64,000 nucleotides of DNA from Rhodocyclaceae bacterium (GTDB lineage Bacteria; Pseudomonadota; Gammaproteobacteria; Burkholderiales; Rhodocyclaceae), in NCBI GenBank assembly GCA_018262775.1, contig JADFDU010000022.1:62001-126000 (forward strand). Direction: 5' to 3'. The notes beneath the pieces are model-generated. The model was not told the origin of the DNA. It did not search any database and saw nothing but the letters and a program-made list of their open reading frames with translations. The position numbers were made by a program, and so were the translations under genes. This document shows positions 30 to 63,458 of the stretch, piece after piece. Each line of letters starts with the position of its first letter. Position 1 is the stretch's first letter.

Positions 30-1183
30 GCAAGCTCGCCTTCGAGTTGCATCAGTGCGGCGGCGAGCTGCCCGACCTGATTCCCACTATGCGCGGCGGA
101 AAGCGCGATGCGCAGCCGTGCCGTGCCGGCCGGCACGGTGGGCGGGCGGATACCCGGCACCCACAAGCCGCGCTCGAACAGCTTGTTCGCCACGTCCATC
201 GTCTCGGCGTTGTCGCCGATCAGCAGTGGCTGGATGGCGGTGTCGGACGGCAGCAGTTGCCAGCGCCTGAGCTTGAGTGCGCCGCGCAGTTGCGCGATGA
301 GCCCGGCGAGATGGCGGCGGCGCGCATCGCCCTGCTCGATGAGATCGATGCCCGTCAGCAGGGCGTGGGCGATCAGCGGCGGCTCGGCGGTGCTGAAGAT
401 GTAGCTGCGCGCCTTCTGCAGAATCCACTCGATGGTGTTCCCCGCGCCGGCGACGAAGGCGCCCGCCGCGCCCGCCGCCTTGCCCAGGGTGCCCATGAGC
501 AGCAGTCGCGGCGAGGCGAGGCCGAAATGCGCCACCGCGCCGCGCCCCTGCGGCCCGAGCACGCCGAAGCCGTGGGCGTCGTCCACCAGCAGCCAGGCAT
601 CGTGGCGCTCGGCGAGTTGCAGCAGACCGGGCAATGGCGCGAGGTCGCCGTCCATGCTGAAGACGGCATCGGTAACGATGAGCTTGCGCTTTGCCCGCGT
701 GGCGGTGAGCGCAGTTTCGAGTGCGGCGAGGTCGAGGTGTGGATAGACATGCAGCTCGGCGCGCGACAGGCGAGCGGCATCGATGAGCGAGGCGTGGTTG
801 AGGCGGTCGGAGAAGAGGGCGTCGCCGCGAGAAGTCAGCGCCGGCACCACGCCGAGATTGGCGAGGTAGCCGGTGGAGAAGAGCAGCGCGCGTTCCATGC
901 CGGTGAATTCCGCGAGGCGGCGTTCGAGCCGGGCATGCGGCGCCATGTGGCCGGTGATGAGCGGCGAGGCGCCGGCGCCGACGCCATACAGACGGGCACC
1001 TTCCTGCGCTGCGGCGACGAGCGCCGGGTCGTTGGCGAGGCCGAGGTAGTCGTTGCTGCTGAAGGCGAGGATGCGGCGGCCGCCGACAACGAGTTCCGGC
1101 GCGCAGGGCGAATCGACGAGGCGACGCTGGCGCCGCAGCGCCAGCGTGTCGAGCGCGGCGAGTTCTTCGTAAAAGTCAGTCAC
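26..1183 (-). CDS. bioF: 8-amino-7-oxononanoate synthase
   Basis: BioF is a PLP enzyme that condenses pimeloyl-ACP (or pimeloyl-CoA) with alanine in biotin synthesis. The 385-residue product has the expected family length. It shows FSSNDYLGL near residue 41, the LVDDAHGFG aspartate/histidine segment near 199, and the PLP lysine in GTLGKAAG at about residue 235. The start chosen is GTG at 1181-1183, which overlaps the bioA stop by four bases (GTGA); the open frame continues upstream through bioA but only as a shadow. A copy of the dispersed 25-bp motif covers the bioA/bioF junction, so motif bases form part of the bioF start. The gene is translationally coupled to bioA and bioD. Confidence 0.93.
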   Translation of the reverse strand: MTDFYEELAALDTLALRRQRRLVDSPCAPELVVGGRRILAFSSNDYLGLANDPALVAAAQEGARLYGVGAGASPLITGHMAPHARLERRLAEFTGMERALLFSTGYLANLGVVPALTSRGDALFSDRLNHASLIDAARLSRAELHVYPHLDLAALETALTATRAKRKLIVTDAVFSMDGDLAPLPGLLQLAERHDAWLLVDDAHGFGVLGPQGRGAVAHFGLASPRLLLMGTLGKAAGAAGAFVAGAGNTIEWILQKARSYIFSTAEPPLIAHALLTGIDLIEQGDARRRHLAGLIAQLRGALKLRRWQLLPSDTAIQPLLIGDNAETMDVANKLFERGLWVPGIRPPTVPAGTARLRIALSAAHSGNQVGQLAAALMQLEGELA

Positions 1184-1195
1184 TGGAATACGGCG
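1171..1195 (+). repeat. dispersed 25-bp motif, copy 1 (bioA/bioF junction)
   Basis: AAAAGTCAGTC, eight bases, ACGGCG. It lies antisense to the bio genes and covers the end of bioA and the bioF start codon. Confidence 0.8.
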
Positions 1196-2496
1196 TCGAG
1201 TGCCGCCTGTGTGCCGCTGACGAGCAGCTTGATCTCCTCGCCGCCGATGACATAGGGCGGCATGAAGTACACGGTGTTGCCGAGCGGGCGCAGCAGCAGG
1301 CCGCGTTCCATCGCTGCCTGGTGGAAGCGGCGCGCGAAGAGCGGGTCGTCGGTATTGACGTCGAAGGCCCAGATCATGCCCGTGTTGCGGAAGTGGCGCA
1401 CACGCGGATCGGCGGCGAGCGGCGCCGAGGCGGCATTGAGCTGTGCGGCGAGGCGACGATTGGCGGCGATGACGCCGTCCGTCTCGAAGATGTCCAGCGT
1501 TGCCAGCGCGGCGCGGCAGGCGAGTGGGTTGCCGGTGTAGGAGTGCGAGTGAAGGAAGCCGCGCGCCGTGCTGTCGTCGTAGAAGGCGGCATACACGGCG
1601 TCCGTCGCCATCACCACCGACAGCGGCAGCGTGCCGCCGGAAATGCCCTTCGACAGACAGAGGAAATCCGGCACGATGCCGGCCTGCTCGTGGGCGAAGA
1701 AGGTGCCGCTGCGGCCGCAGCCGACGGCGATCTCGTCGGCGATCAGGTGTACATCGTGGTGGTCGCACAGGGCGCGTGCGCGGCGCAGGTATTCCGCATC
1801 GTGCATGGCCATGCCGCTGGCGCATTGCACCAGCGGTTCGACGATGAGGGCCGCGATTTCGTGGTGGTGCTCGGCGAGCCATGCTTCCAGTGCGGCGGCG
1901 GCCGCTACTGCCGCGTCGCGCGGCGTCTGACCGGGCGCGGCCTGCCGCCAATCGGGGCTGGGCACGGTGTCGCTGGCGCGCAACAGCGGCGCGTAGGCGT
2001 CACGGAAGAGGGCGACGTCGGTGACTGCCAGCGCGCCGAGGGTCTCGCCGTGGTAGCTGCCGGTGAGGCTGAGGAAGCGCGTCTTGTTCGGCCGGCCGCT
2101 GTTGCGCCAGAAGTGGAAACTCATCTTCAGGGCGATCTCCACCGCCGAGGCGCCGTCGGAGGCGTAGAAGCAGTGGCCCAGTTGGTGGCCGGTGAGTGCG
2201 GCGAGTTTTTCCGAGAGTTCCACCACCGGCTCGTGGGTGAAGCCGGCCAGCATGACGTGGTCGAGTCGTTCGAGCTGCTCGCGCAGGGCGACATTGATGC
2301 GCGGGTTGGCGTGGCCGAAGAGGTTCACCCACCAGGAGCTGATGGCGTCCAGGTAGCGGCGGCCCTCGAAGTCGATCAGCCAAGGCCCTTCGCCCGAGCG
2401 GATCGGCACCAGCGGCAGGGTTTCGTGCAGCTTCATTTGCGTACACGGGTGCCAGACGGCGTCGAGGCTGCGGCGGAGGAGGGAATCGTTGTGCAT
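1180..2496 (-). CDS. bioA: adenosylmethionine-8-amino-7-oxononanoate aminotransferase
   Basis: BioA is a class III PLP aminotransferase that makes 7,8-diaminopelargonic acid with S-adenosylmethionine as amino donor. The 438-residue protein begins with a WHPCTQMK segment typical of BioA, has the conserved SSWWVNLFGHANP stretch near residue 53, a DEIAVGCGRSG motif, and the PLP lysine in LCLSKGISGG near residue 280. It is the first gene of the leftward bioA-bioF-bioD run and shares a 177-bp divergent upstream region with the rightward hydroxybutyryl-CoA dehydrogenase gene. No BirA-type operator was recognised in that region. Confidence 0.94.
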   Translation of the reverse strand: MHNDSLLRRSLDAVWHPCTQMKLHETLPLVPIRSGEGPWLIDFEGRRYLDAISSWWVNLFGHANPRINVALREQLERLDHVMLAGFTHEPVVELSEKLAALTGHQLGHCFYASDGASAVEIALKMSFHFWRNSGRPNKTRFLSLTGSYHGETLGALAVTDVALFRDAYAPLLRASDTVPSPDWRQAAPGQTPRDAAVAAAAALEAWLAEHHHEIAALIVEPLVQCASGMAMHDAEYLRRARALCDHHDVHLIADEIAVGCGRSGTFFAHEQAGIVPDFLCLSKGISGGTLPLSVVMATDAVYAAFYDDSTARGFLHSHSYTGNPLACRAALATLDIFETDGVIAANRRLAAQLNAASAPLAADPRVRHFRNTGMIWAFDVNTDDPLFARRFHQAAMERGLLLRPLGNTVYFMPPYVIGGEEIKLLVSGTQAALDAVFQ

Positions 2497-5873: not shown

Positions 5874-5898
5874 CGCCGTGCTGCCGGGACTGACTTTC
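5874..5898 (-). repeat. dispersed 25-bp motif, copy 2 (intergenic)
   Basis: On the minus strand it reads GAAAGTCAGTC, eight bases, ACGGCG. It lies between the diguanylate cyclase and pyc. Confidence 0.8.
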
Positions 5899-6144: not shown

Positions 6145-9100
6145 ATGAAGAAAATCCGCAGCCTCCTCGTCGCCAACCGCAGCGAAATCGCCATCCGCGT
6201 CATGCGCGCCGCGTCCGAGCTGGGCATCCGCACGGTGGCCATCTATTCCAACGAGGACCGCTTCGCGCTGCACCGCTTCAAGGCGGACGAGTCCTACCTC
6301 GTCGGCGCCGGCAAGAAGCCGATCCAGGCCTATCTCGACATCGAGGACATCATCCGCGTGGCGAAGGAGGCGCATGCCGACGCCATCCATCCGGGCTACG
6401 GCTTCCTCTCCGAGAACCCGGATTTTGCCGCGGCCTGCGCCGCGGCCGGCATCGTTTTCATCGGGCCGCAGCCGGCGGTGATGCGCACCCTGGGCAACAA
6501 GGTGTCGGCGCGCGAACTGGCGCAGAGGGCCGGCGTGCCGGTGATGCCGGCCACCGGCGCCCTGCCGGCCGACCCGGAGGCGGCGAAGAAGCTGGCAGCG
6601 CAGGTCGGCTACCCGCTCATGCTCAAGGCGAGCTGGGGCGGCGGCGGCCGCGGCATGCGCGTGGTGGAGACGGAGGCCGAGCTGGCCCCGGCGATGGAAG
6701 TGGCGCGGCGCGAGGCGGCCGCGGCCTTCGGCAACGACGAGGTGTACCTGGAGAAGCTGGTGCGCCGCGCGCGCCACGTCGAGGTGCAGGTGCTCGGTGA
6801 TACCCACGGCGCACTGGTGCATGCCTTCGAACGCGACTGCTCGGTGCAGCGGCGCAACCAGAAGGTCGTCGAACGCGCCCCGGCGCCCTACCTTCGCGAT
6901 GAACGCCGTGCCGAGCTGTGCGACGCGGCCCTCAAGCTGGCCCGCGCCGCGCACTACACGCACGCCGGCACGGTGGAGTTCCTCATGGACGCCGACACCG
7001 ACGCGTTCTACTTCATCGAGGTGAACCCGCGCATCCAGGTCGAGCACACGGTGACCGAGCAGGTGACGGGCATCGACATCGTCAAGGCGCAGATCCGCCT
7101 CTCCGAGGGAAAGCGCATCGGCGACGAGGACAGCTATGTGCCGCGCCAGGAAGACATCAGGCTGAACGGCCATGCCGTGCAGTGCCGCGTCACCACGGAG
7201 GACCCGGAGAACGGCTTCACGCCGGACTACGGCCGCATCGCCGTGTATCGCAGCGCCGCCGGTTTCGGCATCCGCCTCGACGGCGGCACCGCCTATGCCG
7301 GCGCGGTCATCACGCCGTACTACGATTCGCTGCTGGTGAAGGTGACGGCCTGGGGCCACACACCCGACGAGGCGGGCGCACGCATGGACCGCGCGCTGCG
7401 CGAGTTCCGCATCCGCGGCGTCGCCACCAACCTGCAGTTCCTCGAGAACGTCATCGACCATCCGCTGTTCCGCTCGGGCGAGTGCACCACGCGCTTTATC
7501 GACGAGACGCCGGAGCTGTTCAGGTTCCAGCGCCGCCGCGACCGCGCCACGCGGCTGCTGAAGTTCCTCGGTGAAGTGGCGGTGAACGGCAACCCGGAGA
7601 TGAAGGGCCGAGTGTTGACGGGCGTGCCGGTGCTGCCGCTGGCGAAGCCCATCAAGCCACGCTGCGATCTCGCTGCCGCGCCGCCCGCCGGCACGCGCGA
7701 CCGCCTGCAGGAACTCGGCGCCGAAAAGTTTGCCGCCTGGATGAAGTCCGAGAAACGCGTGCTGCTCACCGACACCACGCTGCGCGATGCGCACCAGAGC
7801 CTGTTCGCCACGCGCATGCGCTCGCACGACATGCTGGAGATCGCGCCGCACTATGCGCGCCTGCTGCCGGATTTGTTCTCGCTCGAATGCTGGGGCGGGG
7901 CGACCTTCGACGTGGCGTTGCGCTTCCTCAAGGAAGACCCGTGGGAGCGCCTGGCGCGCCTGCGCGAGGCCGTGCCCAACGTGCTGCTGCAAATGCTGCT
8001 GCGCGCCTCCAACGCGGTCGGCTACACCAACTACGCCGACAACGTCGTGCGCTACTTCGTCAAACAGGCGGCGAAGGAGGGCGTCGATGTCTTCCGTGTC
8101 TTCGATTCGCTCAACTGGGTGGACAACATGCGCGTGGCGATGGACGCCGTGCGCGCGGAGGGTGCCCTGTGCGAGGCGGCCATCTGCTACACCGGCGATC
8201 TGTTCGATGCGAAGCGGCCGAAATACAACCTGAAGTACTACGTCGATCTGGCCAAGCAGCTGGAGAAGGCCGGCGCGCACATCCTCGGCATCAAGGACAT
8301 GGCCGGCGTGTGCAAGCCGCGTGCCGCTGCCGAGCTGGTGCGTGTGCTGAAGCAGGAGGTCGGTCTGCCCATCCACTTCCACACTCACGACACCAGCGGC
8401 ATTGCCGCGGCCAGCGTGCTGGCGGCGGTGGAAGCGGGCGTCGATGCCGTCGACGGCGCGCTGGATGCCATGAGCGGGCTCACCTCGCAGCCCAACCTCG
8501 GCTCGATCGCCGCCGCGCTCGCCGGTTCGCCGCGCGACTCCGGCGTGGATCTCGATGCCATGCAGGCACTGTCGCTCTACTGGGAGGGCGTGCGCCGCTA
8601 CTACGCGCCCTTCGAGGCGGACATCCGCTCCGGCACCGCCGACGTCTACCGCCACGAGATGCCGGGCGGCCAATACACCAACCTGCGCGAGCAGGCGCGC
8701 GCCATGGGCCTCGAGCACCGCTGGGCCGAGGTGTCGAAGGCCTACGCCGAGGTGAACCTGCTCTTCGGCGACATCGTCAAGGTGACGCCGACCTCCAAGG
8801 TGGTGGGCGACATGGCCCTCTTCATGGTGGCCAACGACCTCACGCCGGCGCAGGTGCGCGACCCGGCGCGCGAGATCGCCTTTCCCGAATCGGTGATCTC
8901 GCTCATGAAGGGCGAACTGGGCTACCCGCCCGATGGTTTCCCCGAGGCATTGCAGAAGAAGGTATTGCGCGGCGACACACCGCTTCCCGGACGCGCCGGC
9001 GACTCCATGCCCGACGTCGACCTCGAGGCGAAGCGCACCGAGGCCGAGGCGGCGGTGGGGCGCAAGGTGGGCGACACCGACCTCGCTTCCTACTTGATGT

Positions 9101-9597
9101 ATCCGAAGGTATTCAAGGACTATGCCGCGCACCGCAGCCACTACGGCGATGTCTCCCTGCTGCCGACGCCGGCCTTTTTCTACGGCCTCGCCGAGTGTGA
9201 GGAGATCGCCGTCGAGATCGATCGCGGCAAGACCCTGATAGTCAGTCTCCAGGGTACGGCGGGACCGGACCAGGATGGCCACGTGCGGGCGACCTTCGAA
9301 CTCAATGGCCAGTCGCGCACCCTGAAGATCGCCAAGGCCGGCATGGCCGCGGTGAAGGAGAAGCCGCGCGCCGAGGAAGGCAACCCGAAGCATGTCGGCG
9401 CGCCGATGCCGGGCTCGGTGGTCACCGTCGCCGTGAAGGCGGGGCAGAAGGTCGCCAAGGGCGATCCGCTGTTGTCCATCGAAGCGATGAAGATGGAGAC
9501 CATGCTCACCGCCGAACGCGATGCCGTCATCGCCGCCATCCACGCCCGTCCGGGCGAGGCGGTGAATGCCAAGGACCTGCTGGTCGAGTACGTCTGA
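6145..9597 (+). CDS. pyc: pyruvate carboxylase
   Basis: This single-chain biotin enzyme makes oxaloacetate from pyruvate, HCO3- and ATP, refilling the TCA cycle. The 1150-residue protein has the full order: biotin carboxylase (about 1-450, with SWGGGGRGMRVV and EVNPRIQVEHTVTE), carboxyltransferase (about 530-800, with LLTDTTLRDAHQSL, IKDMAGVCKP and HFHTHDTSG), PC tetramerisation region, and a biotinyl domain with EAMKMETM (biotinyl lysine about 1116). A copy of the 25-bp motif encodes VSLQGTA in the linker before the biotinyl domain. No strong ribosome site is visible. It sits alone, behind a leader with a shared box and a hairpin. Confidence 0.97.
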   Translation: MKKIRSLLVANRSEIAIRVMRAASELGIRTVAIYSNEDRFALHRFKADESYLVGAGKKPIQAYLDIEDIIRVAKEAHADAIHPGYGFLSENPDFAAACAAAGIVFIGPQPAVMRTLGNKVSARELAQRAGVPVMPATGALPADPEAAKKLAAQVGYPLMLKASWGGGGRGMRVVETEAELAPAMEVARREAAAAFGNDEVYLEKLVRRARHVEVQVLGDTHGALVHAFERDCSVQRRNQKVVERAPAPYLRDERRAELCDAALKLARAAHYTHAGTVEFLMDADTDAFYFIEVNPRIQVEHTVTEQVTGIDIVKAQIRLSEGKRIGDEDSYVPRQEDIRLNGHAVQCRVTTEDPENGFTPDYGRIAVYRSAAGFGIRLDGGTAYAGAVITPYYDSLLVKVTAWGHTPDEAGARMDRALREFRIRGVATNLQFLENVIDHPLFRSGECTTRFIDETPELFRFQRRRDRATRLLKFLGEVAVNGNPEMKGRVLTGVPVLPLAKPIKPRCDLAAAPPAGTRDRLQELGAEKFAAWMKSEKRVLLTDTTLRDAHQSLFATRMRSHDMLEIAPHYARLLPDLFSLECWGGATFDVALRFLKEDPWERLARLREAVPNVLLQMLLRASNAVGYTNYADNVVRYFVKQAAKEGVDVFRVFDSLNWVDNMRVAMDAVRAEGALCEAAICYTGDLFDAKRPKYNLKYYVDLAKQLEKAGAHILGIKDMAGVCKPRAAAELVRVLKQEVGLPIHFHTHDTSGIAAASVLAAVEAGVDAVDGALDAMSGLTSQPNLGSIAAALAGSPRDSGVDLDAMQALSLYWEGVRRYYAPFEADIRSGTADVYRHEMPGGQYTNLREQARAMGLEHRWAEVSKAYAEVNLLFGDIVKVTPTSKVVGDMALFMVANDLTPAQVRDPAREIAFPESVISLMKGELGYPPDGFPEALQKKVLRGDTPLPGRAGDSMPDVDLEAKRTEAEAAVGRKVGDTDLASYLMYPKVFKDYAAHRSHYGDVSLLPTPAFFYGLAECEEIAVEIDRGKTLIVSLQGTAGPDQDGHVRATFELNGQSRTLKIAKAGMAAVKEKPRAEEGNPKHVGAPMPGSVVTVAVKAGQKVAKGDPLLSIEAMKMETMLTAERDAVIAAIHARPGEAVNAKDLLVEYV
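9238..9261 (+). repeat. dispersed 25-bp motif, copy 3 (inside pyc)
   Basis: ATAGTCAGTC, eight bases, ACGGCG. Sense orientation inside pyc, read as I-V-S-L-Q-G-T-A. Confidence 0.75.
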
Positions 9598-12394: not shown

Positions 12395-13282
12395 TTACAA
12401 AAGCCGCCGGTAGCGACCGTCCTCCAGCACGATGGCGCCGTTCTTCAGCAACCGCTCCAGGTGCTTGCCCATGATGGCGCCTTCGCCCCATTCGAAGAAG
12501 GCGCGCGGTTCGCGCGGCTTGCGATAGACGATGCTGGCGGCAACTACATCCGCCAGCGTGCGCGGTGCGGCGAGGAAATCCAGCAGCTTCGCCTCGCGCT
12601 GATCGATGACGCCGAGGTAGCGGTCGAAGGTATCGGAAACATCCCCCTCGAAGCAGCCGTCCTCGTGACTGGTCAGCCACACTTTCGCCGGCAGCCGCTG
12701 CAGGCGCCGCACCGAGGCGATGGTCTCGTCGATGGAGCCGTCGCGGTCGCCGTACCAGGGGCCGAAGCGGGTGAGGTCGTAGTCGCCCATGAACAGCACC
12801 GCCGGCTCGCGGAAGAAGAAGGCGGTGAAACCCGGCGTGTGGCCGGGGGCGTGGATGACATCGACCGTGCAGGAACCCAAGTCGATGACCTCGCCCGGCG
12901 TGAATTGCTGGGTCGCTTGACGCGGCCTGAAGTGAAAGTCAGTCGCCAGGGTACGGCGCCAGTAGTCGCGGTGCGCTTCCTGGCCGATGCCGTACCAGTC
13001 GAGAAAGGCCTCGAGGTCAGAGAGCGGCTCCGCTTCGATCGCCATCTGCCGCAGCGGCAGGCCCGCGAAGAGGTCGAGGTAGATCAGGTGATCTTCGTGC
13101 CAGTGCGACAGCCAGACTTCCTTCACGCCGGGGCCGGCGAGCAGTTCGCGGTAGCGCGCTTCGTCCGCACCGGCGTCGATGAGCACGCCGGCGCCGTCGA
13201 CGTAGACGGAGTTCGAGTGCGGATAGCGGCCGGCGTTGGCGCCGGGGATGAGGCGGATCGGGCCGAAGCGCCGCTCGCTCAT
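12395..13282 (-). CDS. metallo-beta-lactamase-fold hydrolase
   Basis: The 295-residue protein has the MBL metal motif HWHEDH near residue 60, a HAPGHTPG motif (third metal histidine) near 145, GDYD near 165, and SHEDG near 205. This is the glyoxalase II/RNase-like MBL class, and the C-terminal ~80 residues look like the winged-helix tail of MBL proteins related to LACTB2. The substrate cannot be named. A 25-bp motif copy lies antisense inside it (encoding RRTLATDF). It is followed 14 bp downstream of its start region by the separate cytochrome b561 gene on the same strand, so the two may be co-transcribed. Confidence 0.85.
   Translation of the reverse strand: MSERRFGPIRLIPGANAGRYPHSNSVYVDGAGVLIDAGADEARYRELLAGPGVKEVWLSHWHEDHLIYLDLFAGLPLRQMAIEAEPLSDLEAFLDWYGIGQEAHRDYWRRTLATDFHFRPRQATQQFTPGEVIDLGSCTVDVIHAPGHTPGFTAFFFREPAVLFMGDYDLTRFGPWYGDRDGSIDETIASVRRLQRLPAKVWLTSHEDGCFEGDVSDTFDRYLGVIDQREAKLLDFLAAPRTLADVVAASIVYRKPREPRAFFEWGEGAIMGKHLERLLKNGAIVLEDGRYRRLL
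12934..12958 (+). repeat. dispersed 25-bp motif, copy 4 (antisense inside MBL gene)
   Basis: GAAAGTCAGTC, eight bases, ACGGCG, on the strand opposite to the coding strand. Confidence 0.8.
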
Positions 13283-14655: not shown

Positions 14656-14680
14656 AAAAGTCAGTCCCCGCAGTACGGCG
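14656..14680 (+). repeat. dispersed 25-bp motif, copy 5 (intergenic)
   Basis: AAAAGTCAGTC, eight bases, ACGGCG. It lies between the convergent phosphatidyltransferase and histidine kinase genes. Confidence 0.8.
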
Positions 14681-17266: not shown

Positions 17267-17291
17267 GAAAGTCAGTCCCTGCGAGACGGCG
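17267..17291 (+). repeat. dispersed 25-bp motif, copy 6 (intergenic)
   Basis: GAAAGTCAGTC, eight bases, ACGGCG, 15 bp after the hairpin at 17227-17252. Confidence 0.78.
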
Positions 17292-19873: not shown

Positions 19874-22483
19874 TTACACCGTAACTTCCTTGGCAATATC
19901 GGCGAATTCGGCGATCTGGTCGAAGTTCATGTAGCGGTAGACGTCGGCGGCCTTGGCATTCACCGCCTTGACCTGCTCCAGGTACTCGGCCACGGTCGGA
20001 ATCTTGCCCATCAGCGCGCATACCGCGGCGAGTTCGGCCGAGCCGAGATAGACGTTGGTGTCGATGCCGAGGCGGTTGGGGAAGTTGCGCGTCGAGGTGG
20101 ACATCGCCGTACTGCCTTTCCTGATCTGCGCCTGGTTGCCCATGCACAGCGAGCAGCCGGGCATTTCCATGCGCGCACCACTCTTGCCGAGGATGGCGTA
20201 ATAGCCTTCCTCATTAAGGATCATGGCGTCCATCTTCGTCGGTGGAGCGATCCACAGGCGCGTGGGGATGTCGCTCTTGCCTTCAAGCACCTTGCCGGCG
20301 GCGCGGAAGTGGCCGATGTTGGTCATGCACGAGCCGATGAACACTTCATCGATCTTCACGCCGGCGACTGCGGAGAGCGTCTTGACGTCGTCCGGATCGT
20401 TGGGGCAGGCGACCAGTGGTTCCTTGACGTCGGCCAGATCGATCTCGATTACCGCGGCGTATTCGGCGTCGGCGTCGGCCTTGAGCAGCTGCGGCTTGGC
20501 GATCCAGGCTTCCATGGCCTGGATGCGGCGGCCGAGCGTGCGCTTGTCCTCGTAGCCGTTGGCGATCATCCACTTCATGAGGACGATGTTCGAACGCATG
20601 TATTCGATGATCGGCGCCTTGTCCAGGTGCACCGAGCAGGCGGCGGCGGAGCGCTCGGCGGCGGCGTCCGACAACTCGAAGGCCTGTTCCACCTTGAGGT
20701 CGGGCAGGCCCTCGATTTCAAGGATGCGGCCGGAGAAGACGTTCTTCTTGCCCTTCTTTTCGACGGTGAGCAGGCCGGCCTTGATGGCGTAGTAGGGGAT
20801 GGCGTTCACCAGGTCGCGCAGCGTGACGCCGCGCTTGCCGGCCTCCTGCAGCGAGCCCTTGAAGCGCACCAGCACCGACTCCGGCATGTCGAGCGGCATG
20901 ACACCGGTGGCGGCGGCGAAGGCGACGAGGCCCGAGCCGGCGGGGAAGGAGATGCCGATGGGGAAGCGGGTGTGCGAGTCGCCGCCGGTGCCCACCGTGT
21001 CGGGCAGCAACAGGCGGTTCAGCCAGGAGTGGATGACGCCGTCGCCAGGGCGCAGCGCGACGCCGCCGCGGGTGCTGATGAAGGACGGCAGCTCGCGGTG
21101 CATGCGCACGTCGACCAGCTTCGGATAGGCGGCAGTGTGGCAGAAGGACTGCATCACCATGTCGGCGGAGAAGCCGAGGCAGGCGAGGTCCTTCAGCTCG
21201 TCGCGCGTCATCGGCCCGGTGGTGTCCTGCGAGCCGACGGTGGTCATCTTCGGCTCGCAGTAGGTGCCGGGGCGGATGCCTTGTTGCTTCCCATTCGCCT
21301 CCGGTAGGCCGCAGGCGCGGCCTACCATCTTCTGCGCCAGCGAATAGCCCTTGCCGGAATCCTGCGGCGCCTGCGGCAGGCGGAACAGCGTCGACACGGG
21401 CAGGCCGAGCGCTTCGCGCGCGCGGGCGGTGAGGCCGCGGCCGATGATGAGGTTGATGCGGCCGCCGGCACGCACTTCGTCGAGCAGCACTTCCGACTTG
21501 TAGTCGAATGTAGTAATGACCTTGCCGTCCTTCTCGATTCTCTTCTCGTAGGGGTAGATGTCGATGACGTCGCCCATCGCCATCTGCGCGACGTCGCACT
21601 CGATGGGGAAGGCGCCGGCATCTTCCTGGGTGTTGAAGAAGATCGGCGCGATCTTGCCGCCGAGGCAGAAGCCGCCGTAGCGCTTGTTCGGCACGTAGGG
21701 AATGTCCTCGCCGGTCCACCAGATCACCGAGTTGGTGGCGGACTTGCGCGAGGAGCCGGTGCCGACGACGTCGCCGACGTAGGCGACCGCATGGCCTTTT
21801 TTCTTCAGGTCCTCGATGAGCTGCATCGGGCCGCGTTCGCCGGGCTTCTCCGGCATGATGCCTTCGCGCGCATTTTTCAGCATGGCCAGGCCGTGCAGCG
21901 GGATGTCGGGGCGGCTCCAGGCGTCGGGGGCGGGCGAGAGGTCGTCGGTGTTGGTCTCGCCGGTGACCTTGAAGACGGTGACGCTGATCTTCTGCGGTAC
22001 TTCAGGGCGCGAAGTGAACCACTCGGCATCGGCCCAGGACTGCATCACGGCCTTGGCATTGACATTGCCTTTCTTGGCCATCTCGGCGACGTCGTGGAAA
22101 AAATCGAACATCAGCAGCGTGCCCTTGAGGCCTTTCGCCGCGATGGCGCCGACGGCGGCATCGCCGAGCAGGTCGATGAGCGGCTTGACGTTGAAGCCGC
22201 CGAGCATGGTGCCGAGCAGTTCAGTGGCCTTTTCGCGGGAGATCAATGCGCACGCCGTATCGCCGCGACTGACTTTTGCGAGGAAGGCGGCCTTCACCTT
22301 GGCGGCGTCGTCCACGCCGGCTGGCACGCGATGGGTAATCAGATCGACGAGGAAGGCCTCCTCGCCCTTGGGTGGTGTTTGCAGCAGCGCGACCAGTTCC
22401 TCGGTCTGCCTGGCGGTCAGGGGTAGTGGTGGGATGCCGAGCGCGGCGCGCTCGGCGACATGCTGACGATAGGCTTCTAGCAC
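19874..22483 (-). CDS. acnB: aconitate hydratase B
   Basis: AcnB interconverts citrate and isocitrate in the TCA cycle and uses a 4Fe-4S cluster. The 869-residue length is standard. The N-terminal HEAT-like domain includes [13 protein letters not shown] (residues about 84-96); the catalytic part has [11 protein letters not shown] and [11 protein letters not shown], which supply the three cluster cysteines. The start is GTG 22483 with AGAGGA eight bases before it. A copy of the 25-bp motif on the coding strand encodes KVSRGDTA in the N-terminal domain, where it replaces rather than lengthens the family sequence. The gene runs in the same direction as the CitE-like gene and mdh. Confidence 0.96.
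22253..22277 (-). repeat. dispersed 25-bp motif, copy 7 (inside acnB)
   Basis: On the coding (minus) strand: AAAAGTCAGTC, eight bases, ACGGCG. Read as K-V-S-R-G-D-T-A. Confidence 0.82.
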
Positions 22484-37792: not shown

Positions 37793-37817
37793 CGCCGTAT
37801 CCTGGCGACTGACTTTC
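37793..37817 (-). repeat. dispersed 25-bp motif, copy 8 (intergenic)
   Basis: On the minus strand GAAAGTCAGTC, eight bases, ACGGCG, just downstream of zapE. Confidence 0.82.
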
Positions 37818-39251: not shown

Positions 39252-39279
39252 TTCTTATCGCCCTCCTGAGTTGACTGAC

Positions 39280-39350: not shown

Positions 39351-39352
39351 GT

Positions 39353-39901: not shown

Positions 39902-39914
39902 CTCGGGCTCACTA

Positions 39915-42276: not shown

Positions 42277-42294
42277 AGATGCTCCGTTTGTGCG

Positions 42295-42358
42295 GGCTAA
42301 CGTTTGAATTGAGGGGCAGCCCGCTTCTGGGCTGTCCCTCTCGAATGATGGGTTAGCC
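42295..42358 (-). other. attC site (end of HNH cassette)
   Basis: 64 bp bounded by GGCTAAC and GTTAGCC. Central arms GGGGCAGCCC and GGGCTGTCCC. Confidence 0.88.
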
Positions 42359-42364
42359 ATATGC

Positions 42365-42937: not shown

Positions 42938-42956
42938 GTCTGAGATTGAGATGGCT

Positions 42957-42960
42957 AACG
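42957..42960. repeat. target-site duplication, left (AACG)
   Basis: AACG repeats at 44770-44773 on the other side of the insertion sequence. Confidence 0.7.
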
Positions 42961-43053
42961 AGGCTGTAGAAAAAGTCTTCTCATAGCCGCATTCTGCTGT
43001 GAACCAAATGGAATAACAAGACTCCAACCGGCAGTTCAAATGGAGTTACTGCC

Positions 43054-44631: not shown

Positions 44632-44647
44632 GAATTCCCGCCCGGAC

Positions 44648-44672
44648 AAAAGTCAGTCGCCGCAATACGGCG
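44648..44672 (+). repeat. dispersed 25-bp motif, copy 9 (inside the IS)
   Basis: AAAAGTCAGTC, eight bases, ACGGCG, 17 bp after the transposase stop. The tail can form a CGCCG/CGGCG stem. Confidence 0.82.
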
Positions 44673-44690
44673 AGAAATCCCGGCAGAAAC

Positions 44691-44726
44691 AAAAAGCGGC
44701 GCGGAAATTATCCACGCCGCTTTTTT
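44691..44726 (+). terminator. rho-independent terminator at the right end of the IS
   Basis: Stem AAAAAGCGGCG/CGCCGCTTTTT with a 13-base loop and a run of T. Confidence 0.8.
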
Positions 44727-44765
44727 GTTGCTCGATTCAGAGAGGAAATTTGGGTTTTTCTACAG

Positions 44766-44831
44766 CTTCAACGTGAAGTTGAGGCGACTGCGCGGCTTTT
44801 CGCGCAGGTCGCCTCGAACGCAGAGTTATGC
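44766..44831 (-). other. attC site (end of lipoprotein cassette), split by the IS
   Basis: The arms GCGACTGCGCGG and CGCGCAGGTCGC and the core GTTATGC (44825-44831) are here. The other core (GGCTAAC, 42953-42959) lies on the far side of the IS. Joining 42959 to 44772 by the shared AACG gives a normal attC. Confidence 0.78.
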
Positions 44832-44838
44832 ATTTCGG

Positions 44839-45390
44839 CTACTTCGGCATGCTATCAAATGGCAATATTTCAGGAGCCGAATACAGACCTAGAAACTTAT
44901 CACCCGCGTTGCATAGTGGCTTTCCACTTGAAACAAAGGCGCTTGATTTAATTTCCCCATAAGGCGCCTTAACAAACGGCAATACTGCCGCCAAGTCCTT
45001 TAACGCAGATGTTGGGTCGGATTCGGAATTAACTGAAGCGACAACACCATCTTTAAGTGTCAGCCCGAACTTGTTCTTTTCTAGAAGACCAGGGGCATAA
45101 CCAACAAGCTGTGGTTTGTTGTAGTCAGCACGAGTCGAGAACTTAATTTTTTTGTCCTCGGCGCAGTCACCATTGGCAGCCGATCCCATGACGTTTCCAG
45201 ACTTCTCATCAACGAGGATTGTTGTCTTGTATAACTCGATCACGTTCACTGGTTGATACGTGATTACCCCTTCTACTTTTTTGTCCTTTCCATCTAGAGA
45301 TGGGGAGACCACGGTGTACAAGTGTCCGGAACAACCACTGAGACCCGTAGCAAAGAATGCAATTGCCGTTAATCTAGAAACAGAAGCCAT
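44839..45390 (-). CDS. putative lipoprotein in integron cassette
   Basis: A 183-residue product with an N-terminal lipobox (IAFFATGLSGCSG, lipid cysteine about residue 20), so it is likely anchored in the membrane. A GGAGG ribosome site precedes the ATG. The mature part is beta-rich with two cysteines (NGDCAED and KPLCNAGD) and no recognised domain. Lower GC than the backbone. Confidence 0.78.
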   Translation of the reverse strand: MASVSRLTAIAFFATGLSGCSGHLYTVVSPSLDGKDKKVEGVITYQPVNVIELYKTTILVDEKSGNVMGSAANGDCAEDKKIKFSTRADYNKPQLVGYAPGLLEKNKFGLTLKDGVVASVNSESDPTSALKDLAAVLPFVKAPYGEIKSSAFVSSGKPLCNAGDKFLGLYSAPEILPFDSMPK

Positions 45391-45410
45391 TTAATCCTCC
45401 TATTAGAGAT

Positions 45411-45482
45411 GCATAACGTTCAAGGTCAGGGACGCTGCGCGACGCTTTATCGCGCAGCGTCCCCTGCACCGCAGGGTTAGCC
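45411..45482 (-). other. attC site (end of first cassette)
   Basis: 72 bp bounded by GCATAAC and GTTAGCC, with long pairing arms GGGACGCTGCGCGA and TCGCGCAGCGTCCC. Confidence 0.88.
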
Positions 45483-46365
45483 CGCATTTGCACGGGCAAA
45501 CTCAATGAGATATTCAGAGTACATATCGCGAAATGTATTTCCATCGAACTTCCTGTCAATGCCGCGGGATGCGAGTTGAATCTGCATAGTGACCGCAGCA
45601 AACGCGAAAACCTCGTCATCTTCCGGGACCCCTGCGGCGGTCAAGCAGTAATCGATGCGTTCAAACGTTGACGGATGAGTCTTCAAAGTGACGAATTGAT
45701 CTGGACTACGGAAGTCCTTGCAGGGCCAGTATGGCCGCTGCTATTCCGAAGGTTCGCTTTCGTGACTCCTGTTGTACCGTGCTCTTGTCTAGAATCCATT
45801 TGGTGGCGGCGACATCAGCATCCTTTTCCTCTGCAATAGAGCATGTGGTGACCAGTGCTTGATGATTCAGCCGGATGTGGGCGATTTCATGGTGAATGAT
45901 CCAGGCAAGCGCACAGAGAAATAGCTCATTCGTAACGTGCCCATCACTTTTTTCGGCAGGGAAGCGTTCCGGTCTAGGAAGGGCTGTAGGCCATAGGTCT
46001 GTGCCGTTCACCAAGGCATTTCGGCCAGCCCAAGCGAGCAGTTCCATAGCCTTCCTGCTTCGATCAGTGCCGCCAGTATCGAAAGTGCTTGAGCCACTGC
46101 GCTGCGCAAGGCCGTACTCGTTGTAGAGAATCAAATGCGCATGAGCGCTGGCCCATAGAAACTCAAGAGCAGCGACGTTTATCATGATTTCCCGTTCAAC
46201 CAAGCGAACACGAATATTGAATCCCGGCTCGTCCACAAGAGTGAGCATCAGGTTGTTCACGTCCCGTAATTCAGCAAGTTCACTTTCGCGTTCCGGTGCA
46301 ATACGAAAGGCGCATCCGGCTATCGCTTTTTCCAACTCAAGGACAGGAGAACGGGGATGTTCCAT
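45477..46365 (-). pseudogene. Lit-like (peptidase U49) metallopeptidase, broken by a frameshift
   Basis: Two frames make one gene. The first (45706-46365, 219 codons) contains the zinc motif HHEIAHIRLNH near residue 160 followed by SIAEEKDADVAATKWIL, the pattern of the Lit/U49 phage-exclusion peptidases (Lit cleaves EF-Tu). The second (TTG start at 45686, open upstream to about 45708 without a start) reads THPSTFERIDYCL...EVFAFAAVTMQIQLASRGI, which looks like the family's C-terminus, in the +1 frame. Joined length is about 294 residues, close to Lit's 297. It is the cassette nearest attI, so the most recent by position. If the second frame is separate, it is a 69-residue protein of unknown role. 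Confidence 0.62.
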
Positions 46366-46369
46366 TGCT

Positions 46370-46488
46370 GGCTAACGTTATTTAGTTACCGAAAACGATA
46401 ATAAAACATTATTGGACTGCCTGATAAAAACTACTAGACTCGTATTATGCTGTTATTCATGATAATTCAAGTCAAATAGGATATCTAG
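46370..46488. other. attI region and intI leader
   Basis: The first cassette ends here at GGCTAACG (46370-46377, read as GTTAGCC in cassette sense). The AT-rich stretch from there to the intI start holds the presumed attI site and the intI promoter. No LexA-type CTG-N10-CAG box was found. Confidence 0.6.
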
Positions 46489-47496
46489 ATGTCCAATAAA
46501 ACTGAAATTCACGAAAGCGGGAATGCTTCCGTCGAAGCCCCCAGACTGCTGGATCAGGTGCGTGATCGCCTGCGGCTGAGGCATTACAGCCTGCGTACTG
46601 AAACAGCATATATCGGCTGGATTAAACGCTACATTTTCTTTCATGGCAAGCGCCACCCACGCGAGTTGAACAAGGCGGAGGTGGAGGCTTTTCTCACCAG
46701 TCTGGCGGTGGAGCGCAACGTTAGCGCGTCCACACAAAGCCAGGCGCTGGCGGCGTTGCTGTTTCTTTATGGGGAAGTGCTGGGGATCGAGTTGCCCTGG
46801 CTCGACGAGATCACGCGGGCGAAGAAGCCGGTGCGCCTGCCGACCGTGCTGACGCGGGACGAGACGCTGGCGCTGCTGGAGCAGATCGGGGATGCGGAAC
46901 TGCATCTTGTCGTGAGCCTGTTGTACGGCAGCGGCCTGCGCCTGCTGGAGGGCTTGCGCCTGCGGGTGAAGGACGTGGAGCTGGCGCGCAACGAGATCGT
47001 CGTGCGCGACGGCAAGGGCGGCAAGGATCGCGTCACCATGGTGCCGCAGAGCCTGGTTGCGCCGCTGCGCGCGCAGATTGCGAAGACGAAGCGGGTGCAT
47101 GAGGCGGATGTGGCGCGTGGCAAGGGCGAGGTGTGGTTGCCGGATGCACTGGCGGTGAAGTATCCGAATGCGGCGAAGGCCTGGGGCTGGCAGTATGTAT
47201 TCCCCGCGGCGGGGTTCTCGACGGACCCGCGCTCGGGCGCGGTGCGCCGCCACCACGTGGACGAGAAGCGCGTGCAGCGGGCGGTGAAGGCGGCGGCGCA
47301 GAAAGCGGGCATCGTCAAGCCGGTGTCGCCGCACACGCTGCGCCATTCCTTTGCCACGCATCTGCTGGAGGGCGGCTACGACATCCGCACGGTGCAGGGA
47401 CTGCTCGGCCATGCCGACGTGAGCACGACGATGATCTACACCCACGTGCTGAACAAGGGCGGACGAGGGGTGACGAGCCCGCTGGACCGGGTTTGA
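46489..47496 (+). CDS. intI: integron integrase IntI
   Basis: A 335-residue tyrosine recombinase. The N-terminal core-binding domain has [20 protein letters not shown] near residue 26; the catalytic domain has the arginine in [24 protein letters not shown] and the tyrosine in [13 protein letters not shown]. The IntI-specific extra segment ([17 protein letters not shown], about residues 222-238, with RRHHVDE) separates it from XerC/D and phage integrases. It is read towards the right, opposite to the cassettes, as in classical integrons. All catalytic residues are present. Confidence 0.95.
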
Positions 47497-47497
47497 G

Positions 47498-47643
47498 CTA
47501 GGGAAACGCTGAACAAGTTGATTCCGCTCATGGTTCGACAAGCTCACCACGAACGGAATCAACAACTCGCCGTTCGTCCTGAGCCTGTCGAAGGAAGCTT
47601 GTCGAAGGAAGCCTGTCGAAGGACTTGTTCAGCGTTTCCCTAG
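47498..47643. repeat. 146-bp inverted-repeat element after intI
   Basis: Perfect 21-bp terminal inverted repeats (47498-47518 and 47623-47643; outer bases CTAGGGAAACGCTGAACAAG). Inside are about three tandem copies of a CTGTCGAAGGAAG-type unit and its inverse-like GTTCGACAAGCTCACCACGAA. It begins one base after the intI stop codon. Confidence 0.8.
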
Positions 47644-47648
47644 GCGCT

Positions 47649-47673
47649 GAAAGTCAGCTTGCGCAGGACGGCG
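47649..47673 (+). repeat. dispersed 25-bp motif, copy 10 (degenerate)
   Basis: GAAAGTCAGCT, eight bases, ACGGCG, immediately after the 146-bp element. The core has two changes from consensus. Confidence 0.6.
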
Positions 47674-47729
47674 ATTCGGGCTATTTGTGAGTCGTATTTA
47701 ATGCGCAACGCAATCCGGGGGAAAGTCTT

Positions 47730-56003: not shown

Positions 56004-56096
56004 TTCAACACAGAGGTCACAGAGGCACAGAGGGCACAGAGGTTTTTTTCTGTTCTTCTCCGTGCCCTCTGTGTCTCTGTGTTCTCCGTGTTGAAA
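56004..56096. repeat. CACAGAG-type inverted repeat, copy B
   Basis: 93 bp from TTCAACAC to GTGTTGAA, with CACAGAG-type heptamers in one arm and CTCTGTG-type in the other. GTTGAAAGAGG at its right end supplies the likely mobB ribosome site. Confidence 0.85.
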
Positions 56097-56601: not shown

Positions 56602-57887
56602 GCCTTTTATCCTTCGACGACACCCTCGCAAAACTTCTCGCTGCCGCTCGCGTGGTGAACGAAATCGAGGAGGTGGATACGCTCGCCGCCGCCGGCCGCA
56701 CGCTGGCGCGCGCGCAGACGAGCGGCATCACGGTGCCGCCGCTGGACAACTCGTCCATGGACGGCTATGCCGTGCGCCTGGCAGACGTGCCCGTTGCCGG
56801 CACGCGGCTGCCGGTGTCGCAGCGCATCCCCGCCGGCAGCGTCGGCACGCCGCTGCAGCCGGGCACGACGGCACGCATCTTCACCGGCGCGCCGCTGCCG
56901 CAGGGCGCCGACGCCGTGGTCATGCAGGAGTTGTGTGAGCATGCCGACGGCGCGGTGGCATTCAACCATGTGCCGCACGCCGGCGAGAATATTCGCCGCG
57001 CCGGCGAGGACATCTGCGCCGGTGCCGAAATCCTTGCCGCCGGCACGCGCCTGGCACCGCAGGATGTCGGGCTGGCGGCTTCGGTCGGCCTGGCGAAGCT
57101 GCCGGTGTTCCGTCGCCTGCGCGTGGCGGTGTTCTTCACCGGCGACGAACTGTCCCTGCCGGGCGAGGCACTCAAGCCCGGCGGCATCTACAACTCCAAC
57201 CGCTACACCCTGCGCGGACTGCTCGATGCACTTGGCTGCGAGGTGTGCGATCTCGGCATCGTGCCGGACAATCTGGCCGCTACGCGCACTGCGCTACGCG
57301 AGGCGGCGGCGAGTGACATCATCATCACCAGCGGCGGCGTCTCGGTCGGCGAGGAGGATCACGTCAGGGCAGCGGTGCAGGCGGAAGGCGCGCTCGACCT
57401 GTGGAAGATCGCCATCAAACCGGGCAAGCCGCTGGCCTTCGGCAAAGTCAGTCGCCGTGGTACGGCGCAGGTGAGCGCCATCCCCCCGGCCCCCTCCCCG
57501 GGGAAGGGGGTGACGGAGGTTCGCGGGCAGAGCCCGCTCGGAGATGAGGCGGCCTTCATCGGCCTGCCCGGCAACCCGGTGTCGACCTTCGTCACCTTCA
57601 TCATGCTGGTGCGGCCTTTCCTGCTCGCCATGCAGGGGGCGCGCGAAACCGCGCCGCGCAGCCTGACGATGCGTGCCGACTTCGACTGGCCGAAGCCTGA
57701 CCGGCGGCGCGAGTTCCTCAGGGTGCGCATCAACGCCGCGGGCGGCCTCGACCTGTTTCCCAACCAGAGCTCGGGTGTGCTCACTTCCTGCACCTGGGCC
57801 GACGGCCTGGTGGATACGCCGGCGGGCCAGGTACTGAAACGCGGCGATGCCGTGCGCTTCATTCCGTTTTCCGAGTTGCTATACTGA
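56598..57887 (+). CDS. moeA: molybdopterin molybdotransferase, with repeat-derived insert
   Basis: MoeA inserts molybdate into adenylylated molybdopterin. The 429-residue protein has VPPLDNSSMDGYAVR near residue 46, RIFTGAPLPQGADAVVMQE near 92, TGDELSLPGE near 180 and SGGVSVGEEDHV near 246. Between AFGK and FIGLPGNPVS, which in relatives are only a few residues apart, there are about 35 extra residues (roughly 283-317). The first part is encoded by a 25-bp motif copy (KVSRRGTA) and the rest by a C-rich palindromic repeat, in frame. The insert sits just before the conserved LPGNPV segment. Confidence 0.92.
   Translation: MSLLSFDDTLAKLLAAARVVNEIEEVDTLAAAGRTLARAQTSGITVPPLDNSSMDGYAVRLADVPVAGTRLPVSQRIPAGSVGTPLQPGTTARIFTGAPLPQGADAVVMQELCEHADGAVAFNHVPHAGENIRRAGEDICAGAEILAAGTRLAPQDVGLAASVGLAKLPVFRRLRVAVFFTGDELSLPGEALKPGGIYNSNRYTLRGLLDALGCEVCDLGIVPDNLAATRTALREAAASDIIITSGGVSVGEEDHVRAAVQAEGALDLWKIAIKPGKPLAFGKVSRRGTAQVSAIPPAPSPGKGVTEVRGQSPLGDEAAFIGLPGNPVSTFVTFIMLVRPFLLAMQGARETAPRSLTMRADFDWPKPDRRREFLRVRINAAGGLDLFPNQSSGVLTSCTWADGLVDTPAGQVLKRGDAVRFIPFSELLY
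57443..57467 (+). repeat. dispersed 25-bp motif, copy 11 (inside moeA)
   Basis: CAAAGTCAGTC, eight bases, ACGGCG; the tail forms a perfect CGCCGT/ACGGCG stem. Read as G-K-V-S-R-R-G-T-A. Confidence 0.82.
57481..57541. repeat. C-rich palindromic repeat inside moeA, copy 2
   Basis: CCCCCTCCCCGGGGAAGGGG core, then GTGACGGAGGTTCGC and a small GGGCAGAGCCC hairpin. It matches the copy at 23522-23580 and is read in frame through moeA. Confidence 0.75.
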
Positions 57888-58751: not shown

Positions 58752-58844
58752 TTCAACACAGAGGGCACAGAGGCACGGAGAGCACAGAGAAAGCTATTCA
58801 AAAGAACTCTGTGTCCTCTGTGCCTCTGTGCCCTCTGTGTTGAA
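58752..58844. repeat. CACAGAG-type inverted repeat, copy C
   Basis: 93 bp from TTCAACAC to GTGTTGAA, same length and ends as copy B. It lies between the convergent moaE and phasin genes. Confidence 0.85.
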
Positions 58845-59499: not shown

Positions 59500-62079
<2,580 letters not shown>

Positions 62080-62154: not shown

Positions 62155-62204
62155 CCGCCAGCGGGGATAATGCAGGTCATAACAACGAACGCTGCCTGCC
62201 CGAC

Positions 62205-63458
62205 ATGAACAGTACCGCCACCACCGCCCCCATGCGCAGTGACCTGCGTGTCATCAGCCTCATCAGCTTTGCCCACGGCACCTCGCATTTCTTCCACCTG
62301 CTGTTGCCGCCGCTGTTTCCCTGGCTGATGCCGGAGTTCGGCCTGAACTTCACCCAGGCCGGCATGATGATGACGGTTTTCTTCATTGTCTCCGGCGTCG
62401 GTCAGGCGCTGTCCGGCTTTATCGTCGACCGCGTCGGGCCGCGCCAGGTGCTACTCGCCGGTATCGCCTGCTTCATCCTCGCCGCGCTGCTGCTCAGCGT
62501 GGCGAACGGCTACGCCATGCTGCTCGTCGTCGGCGGATTGGCGGGTCTGGGCAACAGCGTCTTCCATCCGGCCGACTTCACGGTGCTCAATCGCAAGGTG
62601 AGCCACGCGCGCCTGGGCCATGCCTTTTCGGCGCACGGCCTGTCGGGCAACCTCGGCTGGGCGATTGCGCCGGTGTTCCTCACCGGCATCGCTGCGGCAG
62701 CGGGTTGGCGTACGGCAGCATTGGGTGCGGCGGCATTGGGTGCGGCGGCCTGGGCGGTGGTCTGGTTTGGCCGTAATGCGACGGAGATGGAAACGGCTGA
62801 AGCGAATACCATGAATACAGAGGCTGGCACCAGAGTCAGTTCCGGCGGGACGGCGTCGACCTTCGGTTTTCTCGGCGTCGGCGCGGTGTGGATGTGCTTC
62901 ATGTTCTTCCTGCTTGTCACCACCGCTTTCGGCGCGCTGCAGAACTATGCCACGCCGCTCATGCAGAACGTGTATGGCCTGCCGGTGGCGGCGGCTGCAG
63001 CGACGCTGTCGTTCTTCCTGCTCGGTGGCGCGGCGGGTATTGCGGTGGGTGGCGCGCTGGCCATTCGCGGTGCGGCGCACGACCGGCTGATCGCCGCAGC
63101 GCTGAGCGCCGCGGCATTGGTCGCCGTACTGATCGCCAGCGGCGCCTTGCCGCCCTGGAGCGTCTCGCTGGCGATGGGCACGATGGGCTTCTTCGGCGGC
63201 ATCGCCGGTCCCTCGCGCGATCTGCTGGTGCGTCAGGCGGCGACGGCGCGTTTTGGCCAGCAGGCCTTCGGCCGCGTGTATGGTTTCGTCTATTCGGGTC
63301 TGGACACCGGGCTGGCGATATCACCGCTGGTGTTCGGCCCGCTCATGGATGCCGGGCGCTTCGGCGTCGTACTGGGCGGCGTGGCGTTGCTGCAGGCGCT
63401 GGCGATCCTGACGGCGCTGAATGTCGGCCGGCAGAGCCGTTCGTCTCAGGCTGCTTGA
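62205..63458 (+). CDS. MFS transporter
   Basis: A 417-residue transporter with about twelve membrane segments in two halves. It has DRVGPRQVLL (the loop 2-3 MFS motif) near residue 72 and HPADFTVLNRKV near 120, resembling the fosmidomycin-resistance/CynX-like MFS group. The central cytoplasmic loop (about 200-220) contains a 25-bp motif copy (RVSSGGTA). A repeat AALGAA occurs twice near residue 175. The start MNSTATTAPMRSDL (62205) is chosen over an upstream ATG inside the clpB terminator region. The substrate is unknown. Confidence 0.87.
   Translation: MNSTATTAPMRSDLRVISLISFAHGTSHFFHLLLPPLFPWLMPEFGLNFTQAGMMMTVFFIVSGVGQALSGFIVDRVGPRQVLLAGIACFILAALLLSVANGYAMLLVVGGLAGLGNSVFHPADFTVLNRKVSHARLGHAFSAHGLSGNLGWAIAPVFLTGIAAAAGWRTAALGAAALGAAAWAVVWFGRNATEMETAEANTMNTEAGTRVSSGGTASTFGFLGVGAVWMCFMFFLLVTTAFGALQNYATPLMQNVYGLPVAAAAATLSFFLLGGAAGIAVGGALAIRGAAHDRLIAAALSAAALVAVLIASGALPPWSVSLAMGTMGFFGGIAGPSRDLLVRQAATARFGQQAFGRVYGFVYSGLDTGLAISPLVFGPLMDAGRFGVVLGGVALLQALAILTALNVGRQSRSSQAA
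62831..62855 (+). repeat. dispersed 25-bp motif, copy 13 (inside MFS gene)
   Basis: CAGAGTCAGTT, eight bases, ACGGCG. Sense orientation, read as R-V-S-S-G-G-T-A in the central loop. Confidence 0.72.

What the first reader, a model, noticed from the sequence alone, without database searches (positions are those of the whole stretch)
1171..62855. Dispersed 25-bp motif of constant length, 13 copies in 64 kb
The motif RAAAGTCAGTC - 8 variable bases - ACGGCG occurs at 1171, 5874(-), 9238, 12934, 14656, 17267, 22253(-), 37793(-), 44648, 47649, 57443, 61050 and 62831. Spacing between the two conserved blocks never changes. Six copies are outside host genes or in the IS, and seven touch coding sequence. 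Where it can be compared with family sequence (acnB, pyc) it replaces rather than inserts. This resembles DNA uptake signals or chromosome-organising motifs more than a transposon. I know of no described motif with this sequence. It is absent from 22.3-37.8 kb, the core of the TCA cluster.
Basis: seen in the sequence. Interest (0 to 1): 0.85.

Follow-up and report, generated by a model that had tools for sequence, protein, structure and literature searches.

The report
Probable self-DNA uptake tag in Rhodocyclaceae
Short near-identical DNA tags sprinkled through this bacterium's genome, with sister versions in related genera, look like the 'own-kind' labels that some bacteria use to choose which loose DNA to take up, in a bacterial family where I found no such label described.

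Summary
The repeat is real: 13 copies in the window (chance 0.3) and 222 exact copies in the genome (reversed control 0). 14 of 15 other genomes of the genus carry 15-354 exact copies; 44 genomes of other genera carry none. It is a fixed 25-bp motif of about 32 bits with featureless flanks, in both orientations and randomly spaced. It is enriched between genes but often lies inside them; at acnB it stands in place of other codons at unchanged length. In the sampled relative it is scarce in low-GC DNA. At class level nothing exceeds background. Many phage contigs carry the second version. These are genomic hallmarks of DNA uptake sequences, known from Neisseriaceae and Pasteurellaceae, dialects included. 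ComEC is found in 15 of 16 genus genomes, ComP-family pilins in all seven tested. Best explanation: a third, family-wide uptake-signal system. Uptake is untested, the receptor unidentified, one complete motif-rich genome gave no DprA hit, and density and inverted pairs are below the known systems.

The parts
1171..1195 (+). uptake-like motif, exact
   Evidence: overlaps the end of the gene called at 1180-2496(-)
5874..5898 (-). uptake-like motif, exact; intergenic
9237..9261 (+). uptake-like motif, 1 mismatch; inside pyruvate carboxylase gene (6145-9597 +)
12934..12958 (+). uptake-like motif, exact; inside gene called at 12395-13282(-)
14656..14680 (+). uptake-like motif, exact; intergenic
17267..17291 (+). 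uptake-like motif, exact; intergenic, after a terminator-like stem-loop (seen by eye)
22253..22277 (-). uptake-like motif, exact; inside acnB, reads K-V-S-R-G-D-T-A
37793..37817 (-). uptake-like motif, exact; intergenic
44648..44672 (+). uptake-like motif, exact; just after a DDE transposase gene (ends 44631), before a hairpin at 44691-44725
47649..47673 (+). uptake-like motif, 2 mismatches; downstream of an integrase gene at the edge of a low-GC island
57443..57467 (+). uptake-like motif, C at the first base; inside a moeA-family gene
61050..61074 (+). uptake-like motif, exact; inside clpB, reads K-V-S-P-Q-D-T-A
62831..62855 (+). uptake-like motif, 3 mismatches; inside an MFS-transporter-like gene
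830..854 (+). weak or decayed motif copy found only by the profile (19.3 bits)

Best explanation
The motif is a DNA uptake sequence: a label recognised at the cell surface, probably by a minor type IV pilin, during natural transformation. DNA with the label is taken up preferentially and recombined into the chromosome. The label therefore spreads by biased homologous replacement, turning near-matches into consensus copies at many loci without insertion. Genera or groups of genera in the family have their own dialects on a shared 24-bp frame. Shown here: copy number, sequence shape, genomic distribution, length-preserving replacement at two genes, dialects, family restriction among the genomes sampled, presence of competence and pilin genes. 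Inferred: the uptake function, the receptor, the direction of change and the biased spread.
For: 222 exact copies, reversed control 0. 14 of 15 other same-genus genomes have 15-354; 44 other-genus genomes have 0. 25 bp, 31.9 bits, flanks 1.1 bits over 20 positions; 168 profile hits against 1 in the reversed control in 0.8 Mb of G002. Strong consensus: 100 exact, 39 one-mismatch, 20 two-mismatch, 13 three-mismatch. Poisson-like counts, and scarcity in low-GC DNA: 0 sites in 18 kb under 58% GC, 0.33/kb above 71%. 94 of 172 sites inside called genes (random 79%), 61 intergenic (18%), 17 at gene edges (2.7%). acnB: same 25 positions without a gap in 12 other genomes, near-motifs in two. Dialects in seven further genera, not above background in 370 class genomes. 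ComEC in 15 of 16, DprA in 14 of 16, ComP_DUS-family pilins in 7 of 7. Version B in phage contigs, as known for USS in Pasteurellaceae phages (PMC6776037, passages). Published USS/DUS traits: no significant orientation bias, non-coding preference with many genic copies, not insertions (PMC1626085, passages).
Against: No uptake or binding was measured. G001, a single-contig genome 99% complete with 279 copies, gives no DprA hit. ComP_DUS pilins also occur in G008, which has no exact copy, so the candidate receptor does not separate carriers from non-carriers. Same-genus G012 (15 exact) and G013 (34) are poor in copies, and 200 kb of G012 shows no profile excess over its control (5 against 7). 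Density is about one per 4.7 kb against close to one per kb for USS/DUS, which are also spaced more regularly than random (PMC1626085), unlike here. Opposite-strand pairs under 100 bp are rare, 2 among 172 sites, against about 10% as inverted repeats (PMC1939737, passages). Weak orientation excess, 97 of 159, p=0.007. In bulk orthologue comparisons gaps were commoner at sites (12 of 58) than at controls (21 of 232), though none totals 24-25 bp. In the window itself the low-GC island holds two sites.
Confidence: 0.85

Rival explanations
1. Recombination or repair signal (Chi-like) read by a recombinase-nuclease inside the cell.
For: Density near one per 4.7 kb and location in ordinary chromosomal DNA; weak orientation excess 97 of 159.
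Against: 25 bp and 32 bits is far longer than any Chi known to me (recalled); no strong polarity; turnover into dialects between sister genera; phage contigs carry version B.
Confidence: 0.05
2. Chromosome-organising or segregation site (KOPS, matS, parS or nucleoid-protein type).
For: Dispersed, chromosomal, shared within a genus.
Against: Counts per 20 kb are Poisson-like with no regional concentration beyond chance variance; weak polarity; not palindromic; copy number runs from 0 (G008) and 15 (G012, 81% complete) to 354 (G002) in one genus.
Confidence: 0.04
3. Self-marker for a defence system or other DNA-discriminating intracellular machine.
For: In G002 it marks high-GC over low-GC DNA.
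Against: No linked machinery was searched for; phage contigs carry version B.
Confidence: 0.03
4. Tiny mobile or palindromic element (REP- or MITE-like) that inserted at many sites.
For: Many near-identical copies; bulk comparisons contain more gaps at sites than at controls (12 of 58 against 21 of 232).
Against: No terminal repeats and no flank conservation; acnB and clpB copies sit in frame where relatives have other codons, with near-motifs; none of the 12 gap totals is 24-25 bp (a gap that broke the alignment would have been missed).
Confidence: 0.02

Closest known systems
DNA uptake sequence (DUS) of Neisseriaceae, with dialects and ComP receptor
   Same: Hundreds of copies in carrier genomes, dialects among relatives, coding and intergenic copies, ComP-family minor pilins present, stray copies of a dialect in other genera
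   Different: Sequence, length (25 against 10-12 bp), lower density, rare inverted pairs, different family; receptor unproven
Uptake signal sequence (USS) of Pasteurellaceae (Hin and Apl types)
   Same: Replacement without insertion, preferred reading frames (here KVSxxxTA and xAVxxxLTF), non-coding preference, phage carriage, extended motif with a weaker part
   Different: Core sequence and spacing; USS has one 9-bp core with AT-rich flanking tracts (recalled), here two strong blocks of 10 and 6 bp with a half-conserved GC-rich middle; lower density
Chi sites
   Same: Density, chromosomal dispersal
   Different: Length, weak polarity, dialect turnover (Chi features recalled)

Membership tests
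uptake sequences (DUS/USS) | DNA with the motif is taken up or transforms preferentially | not testable with these tools
   needs a culture
uptake sequences (DUS/USS) | Large genomic over-representation with strong consensus | tested here: met
   density about one per 4.7 kb is lower than the usual one per kb
uptake sequences (DUS/USS) | Arises by substitution, not insertion | tested here: met
   met at acnB and clpB; bulk set mixed, 46 of 58 gap-free against 211 of 232 controls, no 24-25 bp gap
uptake sequences (DUS/USS) | Both orientations, no replication polarity | tested here: inconclusive
   108/114 in G000; 97 of 159 one way round in G002, p=0.007
uptake sequences (DUS/USS) | In genes but enriched outside | tested here: met
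uptake sequences (DUS/USS) | Related dialects in relatives | tested here: met
uptake sequences (DUS/USS) | Host has competence and type IV pilus genes | tested here: met
   ComEC 15 of 16, DprA 14 of 16 with complete G001 lacking a hit, pilins in 7 of 7; ComEA, PilQ, PilT not tested
Neisseriaceae DUS | Sequence GCCGTCTGAA or a dialect of it | tested here: not met
   consensus differs; of the fixed bases only GCCGT is shared, on the opposite strand
Neisseriaceae DUS | ComP minor pilin as dialect-matched receptor | tested here: inconclusive
   PF16732 pilins in 7 of 7, including motif-less G008
Neisseriaceae DUS | Frequent inverted pairs at terminators | tested here: not met
   2 opposite-strand pairs under 100 bp among 172 sites
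Pasteurellaceae USS | Core AAGTGCGGT (Hin type) or the Apl type (recalled) | tested here: not met
   consensus differs
Chi / KOPS | Strong co-orientation with replication (recalled) | tested here: not met
REP/MITE | Palindromic or bounded inserted unit | tested here: not met

The most novel reading that the evidence does not exclude
A third family of bacteria has a self-specific DNA-uptake code of its own: a bipartite 24-25-bp signal with at least two clear dialects and a probable third across eight genera, read by a pilin whose two contact surfaces bind the AAAGTC and ACGGCG blocks, with the middle encoding the dialect.
Probability: 0.65. Interest if true: 0.9.

Novelty: new variant of a known kind. 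Interest (0 to 1): 0.82.

Why it matters
In the papers seen here, uptake signals are described for Neisseriaceae and Pasteurellaceae. A third case in environmental bacteria, with a longer and sequence-distinct signal and several dialects, would let the open question of how uptake specificity arises and drifts be tested by comparison. It would also give a tag for transforming these organisms and a marker for recently acquired DNA and for phage hosts.

Tried and rejected
Replication polarity: a run of only '+' hits in the G002 listing suggested strict polarity; fetched stretches showed 50 and 50 exact copies, mixed along the chromosome, so it was a listing effect. My first gene caller put pyc on the wrong strand, as one search showed; it was retrained, and searches are superseded for strand, frame and gene context. 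Dialect search by raw k-mers in four other genera (60-100 kb each) found no analogous motif; a profile scan of the same DNA then found one in G016 and none in G017, G018 or G020. Presence or absence of pilins as a receptor test: neither the MSHA-like cluster nor the pilin pair about 4 kb apart tracks the motif (cluster names by eye). Trees of comEC, clpB and acnB were too poorly resolved to place G008; the comEC reference frame was longer than the gene. PF07963 and PF16732 are broad families and not evidence of specificity. No structure was predicted. Papers: string searches for the motifs listed, judged by title, only unrelated papers (20 of 36 shown; 25 of 129 shown); topical searches listed no uptake sequence in Rhodocyclaceae. 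The library lacks most subscription journals, so absence from print is not proven.
Full report
Observation. The pattern occurs at the 13 places listed (one off by a base), nine exactly and four with one to three mismatches, against a shuffled mean of 0.32. The window lies in a 3.09-Mb, 57-contig genome with 222 exact copies of AAAGTCAGTC-N8-ACGGCG, 108 forward and 114 reverse, and none of the pattern read backwards.

Organism. G002, a same-genus genome, has exactly the length (3,145,360) of AP021857.1, Candidatus Desulfobacillus denitrificans, and is taken to be it. NCBI places that in Betaproteobacteria incertae sedis. That the tools' family f1 is GTDB's Rhodocyclaceae is my recollection.

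Range of the exact motif. Of 60 genomes searched, 15 have it: the own genome and 14 of 15 other same-genus genomes (15 to 354 copies; several are incomplete). G008 has none, and neither has any of 44 genomes of other genera. In 369 genomes across the class three besides the own genome have one or two copies.

Shape. In 0.8 Mb of G002 an iterated profile finds 168 sites (one in the reversed control): 25 bp, 31.9 bits, flanks 1.1 bits over 20 positions. The middle eight bases carry 3.4 bits: mostly C at 12, G at 14, C at 15, purines at 16 and 17. The mismatch spectrum 100, 39, 20, 13 falls into a trough before random background rises (43, 331). I see no palindrome and no repeat boundary.

Distribution. 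Counts per 20 kb in G002 are Poisson-like (mean 3.98, variance 3.77). Density rises with local GC from 0 in nine 2-kb blocks under 58% GC to 0.33 per kb above 71%, although the 16 fixed bases are only 56% GC. Against this, the window's own low-GC island (40-48 kb, 53-56% GC) holds one exact and one imperfect site. Of 172 sites with up to two mismatches (159 in G002, 13 in the window), 94 lie inside called genes (random 79%), 61 between genes (18%) and 17 across a gene edge (2.7%). Inside genes two registers are commonest, sense K-V-S-x-x-x-T-A (27) and antisense x-A-V-x-x-x-L-T-F (40); the others hold 13, 10 and 4. Gene calls are my own script's, not an annotation. Orientation in the two halves of the G002 record (split at 1.6 Mb, where GC skew changes sign) is 25/41 and 56/37, a weak excess, p=0.007. 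Close opposite-strand pairs are rare: one at 22 bp and one at 69 bp.

Origin of copies. At acnB the 25 positions align without a gap in 12 other genomes: one exact motif (G002), two at one or two mismatches (G015, G007), nine without it, six of these close to a shared K/T-A-K-G-E-E-like stretch where the window reads KVSRGDTA. At clpB six of eight others share the exact motif, G008 and G013 do not, and a neighbouring one-codon indel is seen. No outgroup was used, so the direction of change is inferred. A broader comparison is less clean: of 58 directed orthologue comparisons (51 source sites; some reciprocal, at least one site counted twice because AP021857.1 loci and G002 stretches overlap) 12 have some gap (controls 21 of 232), none totalling 24-25 bp; many loci there were fetched because they hold the motif, and an alignment broken by a gap would be missed.

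Dialects. Scanning other genomes with the profile showed G016, of another genus, to carry sites like GAAAGTCGGYGCTGRCGRTACGGCG (10 hits above 8 bits in 60 kb, control 1). G008 carries what look like decayed copies (22 against 6 in 354 kb); G012 shows no excess (5 against 7 in 200 kb). A relaxed pattern, AAAGTCNG-N10-ACGGCG, over 150 family genomes gives 76 to 639 copies in 17 genomes of eight genera and at most 22 in the other 133; reversed controls are 0 to 5. Within two of the eight genera not every genome is rich: g19 has one of three, g317 one of two. Version B, AAAGTCGGNNCTGN5ACGGCG, counts 567, 423, 210, 168, 146 and 113 in one genome each of six genera and 5 in G428 of the seventh. G428 instead favours AAAGTCAGC (45 of 76; 29 continue with G), a probable third version. 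In 370 class genomes none but the own exceeds two copies; controls reach three. So in this sample the frame AAAGTC...G...ACGGCG is family-specific and the middle varies by genus, as with DUS dialects (PMC3630211, passages). Scattered version-B copies in other genera recall the stray DUS that paper calls peregrine.

Phages. Version A appears in 24 viral stretches against 17 for the reversed pattern, near chance. Some stretches may be host flank rather than phage. Temperate Pasteurellaceae phages accumulate USS (PMC6776037, passages).

Machinery. ComEC: 15 of 16 genus genomes. DprA: 14 of 16, no hit in the complete G001 or the partial G015. ComP_DUS-family pilins in seven of seven genomes tested, one chosen pilin each, including motif-less G008; minor-pilin clusters beside an ispH-like gene in G000, G008 and G009 by eye. 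The receptor therefore stays open; FimT is another candidate (PMC8897410, title and start of abstract in the listing).

Judgement. The pattern matches what is published of USS and DUS: no significant orientation bias, non-coding preference, 65% of H. influenzae copies in genes, origin by substitution (PMC1626085, passages), a preferred orientation in the reading frame (PMC2346458, abstract). It differs in sequence, length, lower density, lack of over-regular spacing and scarcity of inverted pairs. I hold it to work like an uptake sequence (0.85), but not to be a member of either known sequence family; the defining function is untested.

Noticed in passing
window 38000-47700: Low-GC island with a DDE transposase (43600-44631), a phage-type integrase (46489-47496), an HNH endonuclease and a Peptidase_U49 protein.
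   Followed up: partly
G001 (same genus, single contig): No DprA hit although the genome is 99% complete and rich in the motif; G000 has three DprA-domain hits.
   Followed up: no
G008 (same genus), L170-L189: No exact motif but apparently decayed copies, long branches in the acnB and clpB trees, and its own dispersed repeats (CCCAGCCTAC, long C runs).
   Followed up: partly
window 35069-35119, 56009-56043, 58757-58840: Short arrays of CACAGAGG/CTCTGTG-type units at several places.
   Followed up: no
G400 contig C39, G289, G195, G184: One or two consensus-like copies of version A or B in genomes of other families: recent transfer, mis-binned contigs or chance.
   Followed up: no
L362-L481 (viral contigs): Version-B motif near its full consensus in many viral contigs; could serve as a host marker.
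   Followed up: partly
L036 2240-2272: Two exact copies on opposite strands overlap, spanning 33 bp.
   Followed up: no
L087 (JAJVIC010000036.1): Four exact copies in a 5-kb contig of a Bacteroidia MAG, probably a mis-binned contig.
   Followed up: no
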